This document shows positions 59,342-64,000 of a stretch of DNA of 64,000 nt, piece after piece. The stretch is from an uncultured Porphyromonadaceae bacterium (GTDB lineage: Bacteria > Bacteroidota > Bacteroidia > Bacteroidales > Muribaculaceae), in contig CANRVB010000002.1 in the NCBI GenBank assembly GCA_947643165.1, positions 62,001-126,000 of the forward strand, in the 5' to 3' direction. The position numbers were made by a program, and so were the translations under genes. Every line of letters begins with the position of its first letter. Positions within the stretch are counted from its first letter, which is position 1. The notes beneath the pieces were generated by a model, which saw only the letters and a program-made list of their open reading frames with translations, had not been told where the DNA came from and did not search any database.

Positions 59342-60661
59342 TCACGATATGCCGAAAGCGGCCTTCACCGAATCCACCATGTCGAGCTTTTCCCATGGGA
59401 ACAGACACACGTCGATATCCTTCGCTCCCTCGTAGCGCGATGTGAAGTGCTTCGTTATCTCGCGCGGTTCGCGACCCATGTGGCCGTAGGCGGCTGTCTC
59501 CTCATAAATGGGAGTGCGCAGTCTGAAGCGTTCCACTATCTGCGCCGGTTTCATCGGAAACAGCTCCGCAACCTTGCGCGAGATCTCGCCGTCGCTCATG
59601 CCTACGTGCGCCGTGCCGCGTGTGTCAACCGTCAGGCTCACAGGCTCAGCCTTGCCTATGGCGTAGGCCACCTGCACCAGTGCCTCCTCCGACACCCCCG
59701 CAGCCACAAGATTCTTGGCTATGTGACGGGCGGCATAGGCAGCCGAGCGGTCCACCTTGCTCGGATCCTTGCCCGAGAATGCGCCACCGCCGTGGGCGCC
59801 GCGTCCGCCGTAAGTGTCCACTATTATCTTGCGGCCTGTAAGACCGGTGTCGCCGTGCGGGCCGCCTATCACAAACTTGCCCGTCGGATTCACCAGCAGC
59901 TCCACGTCGTCGCCTATCATGGCGGCTGTCGCCGGGTCGAGCTGGGCCTTCACGCGGGGCAGCAGCACGGTGCGCACATCATGCTCTATGGTGGTGCGCA
60001 TAGCCTCGTCGGCCGTAGCCTGGTCTATCTCGCCGGTGCTGGCGATAAACTCATCGTGCTGTGTCGACACCACTATTGTCCTCACGGCCACAGGACGGCC
60101 CTCCTGGGTGTATTCAACGGTCACTTGGCTCTTCGAGTCGGGGCGCAGATAGGTGCGCACGTGTCCGTGCTCGTCGGTGTAGACCATTTCCTTACCCTCG
60201 CGGCGTATATCGGCCAGCACGCGCATTATCAGATGGCTCAGATGCAGCGGAAGAGGCATATAGCTCTCCGTCTCACGGCACGCATACCCGAACATCATGC
60301 CCTGGTCGCCCGCGCCCTGCTCCTCGCCCTCGCCGTTGCGCTCCACGCCGCGGTTTATATCCGGACTCTGCTCATGGATAGCCGACAGGATGCCGCACGA
60401 CGACGCGTCAAACTGAAGCTCGCTCCGGTCATAGCCTATGCGGTTTATCACCCCGCGTACAACCTTGGGTATGTCTATATATGCCTTGCTCTTTACCTCG
60501 CCGGCAACCACCACCTGGCCCGTTGTGACCAGTGTCTCGCATGCCACCTTCGAGTCGGGATCATGGGCCAGGAATGCGTCGAGTATGGCATCGCTTATCG
60601 CGTCGGCCACTTTGTCGGGGTGACCTTCGCCCACCGATTCCGATGTGAATAGATAGTTCAT
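59342..60661 (-). CDS. metK: S-adenosylmethionine synthetase
   Basis: 439 residues. N-terminus YLFTSESVGEGHPDKVADAISDA (ATP-binding HPDK), GAGDQGMMFGYACRET (about 116-131) and GAHGGGAFSGKDPSKVDRSAAY (P-loop-like, about 280-301). Makes SAM from methionine and ATP. Slightly longer than the E. coli enzyme, as is usual in Bacteroidetes. The leader carries a SAM-II-like RNA candidate, suggesting feedback by SAM. Confidence 0.97.
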   Translation of the reverse strand: MNYLFTSESVGEGHPDKVADAISDAILDAFLAHDPDSKVACETLVTTGQVVVAGEVKSKAYIDIPKVVRGVINRIGYDRSELQFDASSCGILSAIHEQSPDINRGVERNGEGEEQGAGDQGMMFGYACRETESYMPLPLHLSHLIMRVLADIRREGKEMVYTDEHGHVRTYLRPDSKSQVTVEYTQEGRPVAVRTIVVSTQHDEFIASTGEIDQATADEAMRTTIEHDVRTVLLPRVKAQLDPATAAMIGDDVELLVNPTGKFVIGGPHGDTGLTGRKIIVDTYGGRGAHGGGAFSGKDPSKVDRSAAYAARHIAKNLVAAGVSEEALVQVAYAIGKAEPVSLTVDTRGTAHVGMSDGEISRKVAELFPMKPAQIVERFRLRTPIYEETAAYGHMGREPREITKHFTSRYEGAKDIDVCLFPWEKLDMVDSVKAAFGIS

Positions 60662-60794
60662 TGATATGTATATGATTGATATTAGTAAAAAATAAACGAA
60701 CGGACACGGCTGCCGCCGATCCGCTCTTCCTGCAAAAATGCTTCCGCAATTACCCCCATCCGGCCGTCGATCTCATTATCTTAGCCGTGAGGTA

Positions 60795-60848
60795 GCAGTT
60801 TTAGCATTTTTTAGAGTGGTTGCAAGCAGCCAAATTTTTCCACTGCCG
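60795..60848 (-). promoter_or_regulatory. SAM-II-like riboswitch candidate in metK leader
   Basis: Minus strand. P1: AGTGG (60844-60840) pairs with CCACT (60819-60815). The 20-nt loop reads AAAAATTTGGCTGCTTGCAA and is followed by CTAAAAAATGCTAAAAC. The segments ATTTGGC, TTGCA and GCTAAAA in this order match the SAM-II core as I recall it. A pseudoknot of TTTGGC (60834-60829) with GCTAAA (60805-60800) gives six pairs including one G-T wobble. The predicted transcript would start at about P1. Search for RF00521 not run. Confidence 0.6.
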
Positions 60849-60880
60849 CAAAGTTAGCGCTTTTTCACGACTCTGCCAAA
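60849..60880 (-). promoter_or_regulatory. Promoter of metK
   Basis: Minus-strand TTTG (60880-60877) and TAACTTTG (60856-60849) with a 20-bp spacer, a full match to the Bacteroidetes pattern. Transcription start is expected at about 60842-60845, within or next to P1 of the riboswitch candidate. Confidence 0.75.
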
Positions 60881-61043
60881 TCTTTCTGGACATGCCATCG
60901 CATACTCTAATTAACTTATAATTTGCAATATTAAATTTCTGTAACTTTAAATTATTAAGGTGAAGCTCTCGCTATAGATGTGTTTGTCAACAGTTTTTCT
61001 TATTTTTTTTGTTAAAATGTTGTACTAAATGATATAAAGTCCG

Positions 61044-61051
61044 TATATTTG
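61044..61051 (+). promoter_or_regulatory. Promoter -7 element for the SusC-like gene
   Basis: TATATTTG followed by CC; TTG lies about 21 bp upstream. The start codon is 83 bp downstream. A small hairpin GATGTG/CACATC (61065-61081) lies in the leader. The AT-rich rest of 60881-61043 has nothing further recognised. Confidence 0.65.
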
Positions 61052-61133
61052 CCAGCATATCCGTGATGTGACTTGCACATCTCGGTGTACGTGTGTAATA
61101 TTAGTAATTATTCTTTTAGTTCTACCAAATCTT

Positions 61134-64000
61134 ATGCCAAAGCATTTAATTACGGGCATAATGAGCGCTGCTCTTCTTGCAGGGGGGGGTATGTAGCTCA
61201 CGCTCAGAATGTTAGCGCGACACAGCAGGCCGCTATTTGTACAGGCCAGGTGCTGTCGAACACCGGAGAGGAAGTGATTGGAGCTACCATCAAGGTCAAA
61301 GGTACCGACAAGGCTACCAGCACAAACATCGATGGTAAGTTCTCACTTACAGGTATCAAAAAGGGAGCCGTGCTCGAAATCTCCTGCATCGGCTACAACA
61401 ACGTTGAGGTCACCTGGAATGGCGAACCTCTTAACATCACAATGAACGAATCTACCAACGAGCTCGACGAGGTCGTTGTCGTTGGTTATGGCGTTCAGAA
61501 AAAAGCAAACGTAACCGGTGCCGTATCAACTATGAGCGCCAAGGCCATTGAAAATCGTTCCGTCGCTTCTATTTCGGCAGCAATGGCCGGTGAGATGCCT
61601 GGCGTTGTTGTTGTGCAGTCTTCAGGTGCTCCCGGTGGTCAGACCGGTTCTATCACTATCCGTGGTAACAACACTATCAACTCTGCTTCGCCGCTCGTTA
61701 TTGTAGATGGCGTTCCCGGTTCGATGAATAACATCGACCCTCAGGATGTTGAGTCAATATCTGTCCTCAAGGATGCCGCTTCTGCTGCCATCTACGGTGT
61801 GCAGGCCGCTAACGGCGTTATTCTTATAACGACCAAGAAGGGTAAGCTCAATGCCGCACCCAAGATTTCTTACTCAGGCATGGTGAGCAGCACAAGCCCC
61901 ACTACTAAGCTTGATCCCGTTAATGCCTACGAGTACACTTTCCTCATGCGTGAGGCGTTGCTCAATGGTAATCCCAATGCCAATGTAGCTTCCTACGACG
62001 CCGCTATCAAGAAGTATGAGAGCGGTGAACTCGATAAGGAGGGTACCAACTGGTGGGATGAGACCTTCAAGAGCCACGGCACTGAGACCTCTCATACAGT
62101 TCAGATCAACGGTGGTTCTGCCAATACTACCTACATGGCTTCTCTCGGCTATCTCTATCAGGGTGGTATGCTGTCGCAGACCGACTACAACCGCTATAAC
62201 GTCCGCTCCAACCTCGACTCCAAGATCAGACCCTGGCTCTCTGCTGGTCTTCAGATCGCTTTCGACCGTGGTATCTCAAAGGACGGTAATACCGGTTATG
62301 CAAGCATCGTTCAGCATGTCAACCGTCTGAACGCCACTCTGCCGGTATATACCGAGGATGGTGGTTTCGCTTCTCCCGGTTCTATGCAGAACCCTGTTGC
62401 CGAGGCTCAGAAATATGCTACCGGTATTTCGCGTCGCACTACCGACAATATGAATACCAACATCTACCTCAATATCACCCCTATTGAGGGCTTGAGCATC
62501 CGTCCGCTTTTCTCTTGGCGCTATAATTCTCAGGATTACTTCGCATTCAAGAAGACTCTTTACTACGACAATACCTGGAATGCGGGTGATAACAGTACCC
62601 GTAGCGGTAGTCACAACTACTACAACTACAACTGGATGACCTATCAGGCTGTAGCAAGCTACATGAAGACGCTTGCCGAGAATCACAATATCAACCTGAT
62701 GGCTGGTTACGAAGCTCAGCACTACACCTACCGTTACACTATCTCGACCCGCGAGGGTGGTGGTGACAACGCTCTTGATCAGGTACTTGATGCTTTGGCA
62801 ACTTCTTCTATGAAAAATAATGACAACGGTGATGAGCTCAACCGTCGTTCATGGTTCGGCCGTGTGCAGTATGACTACGCAACACGCTATCTCTTTGAGG
62901 CCAACTTCCGTGCCGATGCTTCCAGCCGCTTCCCCAAGGACAACCGTTGGGGTTACTTCCCCGCTTTCTCTGCCGGTTGGCGTATCAGTCAGGAAAGCTT
63001 CATGGAAGGTACCCGCGATTGGTTGGATCAGCTGAAGCTTCGTATCGGTTGGGGTAAGACCGGTAACGAGGAGCTTAACGAATACTATCCGGCTGTTGCA
63101 ACATACGCTTACTTTAACTCTTACATCGGTCACAACCAATATGCTTCTCTCTACGAGAGCCGTTACGTGAATCCCAACCTCAAGTGGGCTACCGTGACCA
63201 ACTATGAGTTTGGTATCGAGGCTTCGATGTTCAACAACCGTCTGTCTTTCGAAGGATCTGTTTACCATCGCAATACCTCCGACATGCTTCTTAATCTCCC
63301 GATCCTGACAGTGCTTGGTGTGGGAGCACCTGCCCAGAATGCAGGTTCGGTTATAAACAATGGTGTTGACATTACCATCAGCCACCGCAACCGCATCAAC
63401 AAGGATTGGAGCTACAGCATTACTGTCAATGCCGGTTACAACCATAACAAGATCTCCAACCTCAGAGGTACGGATGGCCAAGTGCCCAATTCGGCTCCCC
63501 TTTGGTATCTTCAGGGTGAGGCAATCGGTTCTTACTATGGATACATTTGCGACGGTATTTTCAAGGACGAGGCTGAAGTTGAGGCCGGACCGCTCCGCAC
63601 TGGTACTGAAAAACCCGGTAACCTCCGTTTCAAGGACATATCCGGTCCTGATGGTGTGCCCGATGGTAAGATCACTGAGGCTGACCGTGCTGTCATGGGT
63701 AAGATCAACCCGTCATGGATGGGTGGCGTGAATATTGGTGTCAACTTCCGCGACTTCGACCTCTCCATGTTGTGGCAGGGCGCTTTCGACTACGAGCGTT
63801 ACATGACCGGTGAGGCTTCTCAGGCTTTCTATAACAACGGCACTATGAACAAGTGGCAGATGAGAGAGCGTTGGACTCCGGAAAATCCCAACGGAACATA
63901 TCCCCGTCTCTACTCCAACTCTTCAGGCTCGCCCGATGTTATTGCCAACTCATTCTGGTGTGAGGACGCAAGCTATGTCCGCCTGAAGAATCTGACTATC
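61134..64000 (+). CDS. SusC/RagA TonB-linked receptor, frameshifted at G8, runs off window
   Basis: ATG at 61134 opens MPKHLITGIMSAALLAGG, an export signal, but the frame ends at TAG 61194-61196 just after a run of eight G (61182-61189). With one added G it continues GGYVAHAQN (signal peptide end) and stays open for 937 codons to the window edge. Downstream domains: CarboxypepD_reg-like (about 35-115, TGQVLSNTGEEVIGATIKV), TonB-box/plug (DELDEVVVVGYG; VIVDGVPGSMNNIDPQDVESISVLKDA) and barrel strands ending VRLKNLTI. Outer-membrane glycan import, with a SusD gene expected to the right. Start codon, signal and frame are unambiguous; only the tract length is in doubt. Confidence 0.88.

What the first reader, a model, noticed from the sequence alone, without database searches (positions are those of the whole stretch)
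61134..61260. SusC-like receptor is OFF by one base at a G8 tract inside its signal peptide
Seen: eight consecutive G at 61182-61189. As written, translation from the ATG at 61134 stops at TAG 61194. Adding one G gives an intact signal peptide joined to 937 open codons of SusC. Removing one G gives another stop after about 30 nt, so only G9 (or G9 plus multiples of 3) is ON. Mononucleotide slippage in a signal peptide is a classic ON/OFF phase-variation design. In Bacteroidales, surface variation is better known from DNA inversions, so a slippage switch on a SusC receptor would be unusual. A one-base assembly error in the tract is the main alternative.
Basis: partly seen in the sequence, partly recalled or inferred. 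Interest (0 to 1): 0.85.

Follow-up and report, generated by a model that had tools for sequence, protein, structure and literature searches.

The report
Poly-G slippage switch on SusC receptors
A nutrient receptor gene in this bacterium carries a run of eight Gs in its signal peptide that puts it out of frame, and related genes in sister species carry runs of eight to ten Gs at the matching spot, mostly in frame, which points to a mutational on/off switch used on many such receptors in this genus.

Summary
A G8 run at 61182-61189 stops translation from ATG 61134 at TAG 61194, and a full SusC frame follows. The run alone is unremarkable: 1.6 are expected per shuffled window. Position and relatives are the evidence. 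Orthologues in five other species of the genus carry exactly G9 there, in frame, at 66-71% protein identity. Of 85 distinct SusC N-termini resolved in the genus, 23 carry a G/C run of 8 or more near the signal peptide; 98,550 nt of SusC body hold none, and GGG is 1.2% of glycine codons there. With two more read by eye, 17 are ON and 8 OFF (OFF at G8, G9 or G10); seven genomes hold both. Other SusC genes have G8-G10 upstream at fixed spacings from TAnnTTTG boxes. Best reading: slipped-strand phase variation of SusC, by signal-peptide frameshift or promoter tract. Ten paper searches showed me no report of it; the two reviews I read in passages describe SusC variation by DNA inversion. Without reads or a second strain, switching itself, and whether this copy is truly G8, remain unshown.

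The parts
61044..61051 (+). TATATTTG, fits the Bacteroidetes -7 box TAnnTTTG (consensus recalled); a TTG at 61020-61022 lies 21 nt upstream. Likely promoter, without a G tract
   Evidence: only TAnnTTTG between 60951 and 61134; the TTG was read by eye, not tested
61134..61196 (+). Open frame from the SusC start codon in the G8 state: 20 residues, then TAG
61182..61189 (+). G8 tract in the signal peptide; five orthologues have G9 here
61193..64000 (+). SusC/RagA TonB-dependent receptor, out of frame with its signal peptide; continues to window-equivalent 64192
61241..61480 (+). CarbopepD_reg_2 domain (PF13715)
   Evidence: residues 17-96 of P0001
61502..61819 (+). TonB plug domain (PF07715)
   Evidence: residues 104-209 of P0001

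Best explanation
The G tract is a slipped-strand contingency switch. Replication slippage adds or removes a G. At G9 the signal peptide is in frame with SusC and the receptor is made (ON); at G8 or G10 translation stops a few codons later (OFF). In this assembly the gene is OFF. Many SusC genes of this genus carry the same device, either in the signal peptide or as a G tract at a fixed distance from the promoter's -7 box, so a population should hold cells with different mixes of outer-membrane nutrient receptors. Shown: the tract, the frames, the conserved runs, ON and OFF lengths between species and between paralogues of one genome, and low dN/dS between ON and OFF copies. Inferred: that length changes occur within a population and reversibly, that OFF abolishes the receptor, and that the upstream tracts change transcription.
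For: Orthologues L032, L034, L035, L036 and L037 have G9 in frame; the window copy has G8. Synonymous sites are near saturation (window against L032, L033, L036: dS 1.45-1.71, dN/dS 0.13-0.16), yet the run persists. Among 85 distinct SusC N-termini 23 have a run of 8 or more in the 120 nt before the motif; 21 more runs lie 120-420 nt upstream in the 75 with enough DNA; 98,550 nt of body have 0. GGG is 42 of 3,481 Gly codons in those bodies, so three in a row by codon use is about 2e-6. With L252 (OFF) and L254 (ON) there are 17 ON and 8 OFF (L251/L302, cut at its 5' end, counted ON). Seven genomes (G000, G002, G003, G011, G023, G025, G028) hold both states. One clade shows G9 ON (L040, L042), G10 OFF (L044) and G8 OFF (L240), with dN/dS 0.04-0.06 for L040 against the two OFF members. 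Runs sit at the same place in dissimilar signal peptides, one of them a C9 run (L077). Of 23 upstream runs 17 have an exact TAnnTTTG at 18-21 or 38-41 nt, against a mean of 0.8 and a maximum of 6 in 2000 random placements (bands chosen).
Against: No reads and no second strain: one genome per species is held, so no length change within a species or population was seen. The genome is a 46-contig draft, 88.5% complete, and homopolymers are where drafts err. Low dN/dS averages over long divergence and does not exclude a recent, permanent OFF; for more distant ON/OFF pairs with short alignments the ratio is higher (L246-L256 0.19, L231-L246 0.23, L246-L054 0.32). Some relatives encode the same glycines without a run (L038, L050, L051, L236) and one orthologue has neither (L033), so the device is not universal. 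In 35 of 75 SusC genes no run was found. One search's query carries the run, which may raise the fraction; related genes are not independent, so P values overstate. Six of 23 upstream runs do not fit the two spacings.
Confidence: 0.85

Rival explanations
1. Assembly or consensus error: the real tract in this genome is G9 and the gene is simply ON.
For: Draft assembly of 46 contigs, 88.5% complete; five orthologues are G9.
Against: Seven other SusC N-terminal tracts read OFF, one in this genome and six in six further genomes, at G8, G9 and G10. An error would not make or keep the runs. This rival concerns the present state of this copy and can be true together with the switch reading of the locus.
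Confidence: 0.2
2. A fixed frameshift: the gene is a fresh pseudogene and the tract was only a mutation-prone spot.
For: The frame is broken as written.
Against: The rest of the gene, about 1,000 codons, has no further break, and the SusD gene is intact; dN/dS to three orthologues is 0.13-0.16; the matching site varies in length in other clades.
Confidence: 0.05
3. Programmed ribosomal frameshifting or RNA-polymerase slippage at the G run gives a steady low level of receptor, without DNA length change.
For: Homopolymers of eight or more can be slip sites (PMC3711429, passages, which names runs of A or T as characteristic).
Against: 17 of 25 genes with the run are already in frame and would need no recoding; genes with the run upstream of the start codon are not translated through it.
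Confidence: 0.05
4. Neutral: three adjacent glycine codons happen to be GGG.
For: A GGG tripeptide recurs at this site, also with mixed codons (L038, L050, L051).
Against: GGG is 1.2% of Gly codons in these genes and no run of 8 occurs in 98,550 nt of body; runs also sit upstream, where no codons apply.
Confidence: 0.01

Closest known systems
Simple-sequence contingency loci with G/C tracts (Campylobacter, Neisseria, Bordetella)
   Same: Homopolymer tracts in or before genes that switch expression by length (PMC8355987, PMC5320596, PMC1891110: listing and abstract openings only; details recalled)
   Different: Here in Bacteroidales, on SusC nutrient receptors, with several paralogues per genome and two tract positions; switching not yet observed
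Invertase-mediated phase variation of SusC/SusD in Bacteroides fragilis (Nakayama-Imaohji 2009)
   Same: The same receptor family is phase variable in the same order (cited in PMC11868660 and PMC12632263, passages; the paper itself is not held)
   Different: That works by DNA inversion. Here the only inverted pair found in 60500-61700 is 15 nt, 87% complementary, 717 nt apart; it brackets the promoter but its arms lie inside the upstream ORF on the other strand and inside SusC, so I take it as chance
[quoted passage not shown]
   Same: A variable G run tunes a gene (PMC8295292, abstract opening only)
   Different: There an mRNA-leader target; here the run is in the signal peptide or upstream of the -7 box

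Membership tests
Slipped-strand (SSR) phase-variable locus | A repeat tract placed so that a unit change breaks the frame | tested here: met
Slipped-strand (SSR) phase-variable locus | Different tract lengths, in and out of frame, at the same site in relatives | tested here: met
   between species and between paralogues of one genome:
Slipped-strand (SSR) phase-variable locus | Tract kept above chance | tested here: met
Slipped-strand (SSR) phase-variable locus | Reversible, frequent length change within one clonal population | not testable with these tools
   no reads, one genome per species
Slipped-strand (SSR) phase-variable locus | Expression follows tract length | not testable with these tools
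   no RNA or protein data
SusC/RagA TonB-dependent receptor | Profile match above cut-off, plug and CarbopepD domains, SusD neighbour | tested here: met
Invertible-promoter SusC (Bacteroides type) | Inverted repeats around the promoter | tested here: not met
   60500-61700 only: one 15-nt, 87% pair with both arms in coding sequence, taken as chance

The most novel reading that the evidence does not exclude
A Bacteroidales genus runs a combinatorial receptor repertoire by replication slippage. Of SusC genes with enough upstream DNA, 40 of 75 carry a G/C tract of 8 or more, mostly either in the signal peptide (translational switch, 19) or upstream (transcriptional switch, 19) and rarely both (2). 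The two classes of promoter spacing, about 20 nt apart, suggest that the promoter tract works through helical placement next to the -33 region. Single cells would thus differ at random in which glycans they can import and which receptors phages or antibodies can see.
Probability: 0.65. Interest if true: 0.85.

Novelty: new variant of a known kind. Interest (0 to 1): 0.78.

Why it matters
In the review passages I saw, surface variation in gut Bacteroidales is described through DNA inversion. Slippage is a different route: no invertase, each locus independent, state readable from ordinary reads by tract length. If it acts on nutrient receptors, work on glycan use, phage receptors and strain engraftment in these bacteria would have to type tract length, and automatic annotation may be splitting or dropping the OFF genes as frameshifted. 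It is directly testable with deep metagenomes.

Tried and rejected
Chance: a G8 in 64 kb is expected, so the run alone was not taken as evidence. DNA inversion at the promoter. An in-frame alternative start: the SusC frame upstream of the tract has a TTG start but no signal peptide, while the G9 orthologues use the frame of the ATG. Spread beyond the genus: among best-scoring loci from other genera of the family, 0 of 10 resolved had a coding run and 2 of 10 an upstream run (3 unresolved); in other families of the order 0 of 23 had any (4 unresolved) (some of these have a long N-terminal domain, so their promoters were not reached). Of 80 named-genome loci (best 80 of a capped list), 2 had a G/C run of 7 or more between -300 and +90 of the match: L109 (G9, in frame, 55% identical) and L119 (C9). 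An exact 22-nt scan of viral contigs found nothing. The rule-based ON/OFF caller marked L044 ON through a stray Met; read by eye its signal-peptide frame is out of frame with SusC, and I count it OFF. Of 139 genus loci given to the census, 25 failed the motif filter and are outside the 85; four of the 25 had runs, read by eye: two coding, two upstream. L040 and L042 look the same over the stretch shown but differ at 128 of 1,500 nt. One search stopped with an error at its last locus (L109). The genome fractions were measured from a motif that lies far from the start in some SusC genes; one search replaces them.

Full report
WHAT IS THERE. The frame that follows is SusC/RagA (TIGR04056 858 bits; plug and CarbopepD domains). 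It stays open past the window end to a stop at window-equivalent 64192, and a SusD gene follows after 14 nt. A TATATTTG box at 61044-61051 is a plausible promoter -7 element; there is no G tract near it. One inverted pair was found in 60500-61700: 15 nt, 87% complementary, 717 nt apart, with arms in two coding sequences; I take it as chance.

IS IT CHANCE. A G8 is expected in a window like this (mean 1.61), so the string alone proves nothing. Position does. The window's genome has 28 runs of 8 or more, leaving out four hits in a poly-C contig end at C1:1-113. Three lie in the N-terminal coding part of SusC genes: the window, C9:79073-79080 and C7:42000-42008. Five lie upstream of SusC genes within about 260 nt of the start codon: the G runs of L076, L083, L086 and L108, and a C9 run 175 nt before the start of the C9-contig gene.

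RELATIVES. Orthologues in five other species of the genus, 66-71% identical in protein over the aligned part, have exactly G9 at the same place and read straight through: L032, L034, L035, L036, L037. One orthologue (L033) has no run; one more distant (L038, 55%) encodes the glycines with mixed codons. Synonymous sites between the window gene and L032, L033 and L036 are close to saturation (dS 1.45-1.71) while dN/dS is 0.13-0.16, so the run is kept while its surroundings have turned over.

GENUS CENSUS. I gave 139 loci, the own genome, the 60 stretches, to a motif-based census; 25 failed the motif and the rest collapse to 85 distinct SusC N-termini. Only part of the matches listed was fetched, mostly best-scoring first, and that list was itself cut. 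Runs of 8 or more: 23 of 85 have one in the 120 nt before the GxVxD-like motif; among the 75 with at least 420 nt upstream, 19 have only an N-terminal run, 19 only an upstream run, 2 both (L054, L212) and 35 neither; 0 runs in 98,550 nt of body. GGG makes 42 of 3,481 glycine codons in these bodies; in five other genes of the window it is 6 of 225. The query came from a gene with the run, so the fraction may be biased upward; loci are related, so P values are not to be taken literally. The tendency of the two tract positions to exclude each other is weak (Fisher P 0.04).

ON AND OFF. Counting the 23 plus two read by eye (L252, L254): 17 ON (14 G9, one C9, two G8, of which L251/L302 is cut at its 5' end) and 8 OFF (window G8, L054 G8, L240 G8, L256/L299 G8, L044 G10, L248 G10, L231 G9, L252 G9). 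At least 13 of 34 genomes have such a gene. Seven contain both states. In one clade the same site is G9 ON (L040, L042), G10 OFF (L044) and G8 OFF (L240); dN/dS of L040 against the OFF copies is 0.06 and 0.04, so these OFF copies show no sign of decay. More distant ON/OFF pairs give 0.19-0.32. L236 matches L233 in this stretch of protein but has the run interrupted (GGGAGGGGG), which should lock it ON.

PROMOTER TRACTS. Upstream runs are placed precisely: 17 of 23 have an exact TAnnTTTG starting 18-21 or 38-41 nt after the run; random placements nearby give a mean of 0.8 and at most 6 in 2000 trials (the bands were set). The six others are L054, L055, L212, L227, L235 and L255; L212 and L235 have a one-mismatch box at 20 and 19 nt. 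The TAnnTTTG consensus is recalled. Many runs also have TTAAC-like repeats just upstream (seen by eye, not counted). This looks like a second, transcriptional form of the same switch; its effect is inferred.

RANGE. Outside the genus the coding run was not seen in 10 resolved best loci of the family nor in 23 of the order; two family loci had an upstream run. One of 80 named-genome loci, JAQXRG010000103.1 (Bacteroidales bacterium isolate SUG1451), has G9 in frame in the signal peptide. These are best-scoring loci only, not a census.

LITERATURE. Ten searches of open-licence PMC text listed no paper that I recognised, from titles and abstract openings, as treating homopolymer variation of SusC or of Bacteroidales receptors. 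Listings were capped (20 of 24, 20 of 816, 20 of 55); subscription papers and preprints are mostly not held; in word-start searches 'SusC' also matches 'susceptibility'. Two reviews, read as passages, describe SusC/SusD variation in Bacteroides by invertase (PMC11868660; PMC12632263). A frame-transition survey covered 22 Bacteroidetes genomes; its main text does not hold the words TonB or SusC (PMC3711429; supplements not seen). Ornithobacterium hominis, recalled to be of the same phylum, is said to have adhesin genes with a putative phase-variation mechanism, not specified in the passages seen (PMC13183296).

VERDICT. The locus is very likely a slipped-strand switch and one of a genus-wide set. 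Whether this one copy is truly G8 in the cells, and how fast it flips, needs reads.

Noticed in passing
G000:C1:273161-273170 (L065): G10 run in frame inside a polysaccharide biosynthesis (flippase-like) gene (PF13440): another likely slippage target.
   Followed up: partly
SusC upstream regions, e.g. L057, L058, L259, L260, L265; own genome L083, L086: G tracts at two fixed distances (18-21 and 38-41 nt) before TAnnTTTG, with TTAAC-like repeats upstream of the tract.
   Followed up: partly
G000:C13:8943-8951 (L087): Run of nine that ends 6 nt before the start codon of an Asp-Al_Ex permease gene, read as C9 on the gene's strand, where length could tune initiation.
   Followed up: no
G000:C6:10155-11680 (L071, L073): Three G9-G10 runs within 1.6 kb, two of them in similar sequence; the two ORFs scanned with Pfam gave no match.
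   Followed up: no
G000:C10:47900-47908 (L085): G9 run 236 nt upstream of a Porin_O_P gene.
   Followed up: no
G000:C9:78806-78814 (L081): C9 run beside a terminator-like hairpin (by eye), 175 nt before the start of the second G8-bearing SusC gene.
   Followed up: no
G000:C1:1-113 (L061): Contig begins with long poly-C blocks, probably an assembly end artefact.
   Followed up: no
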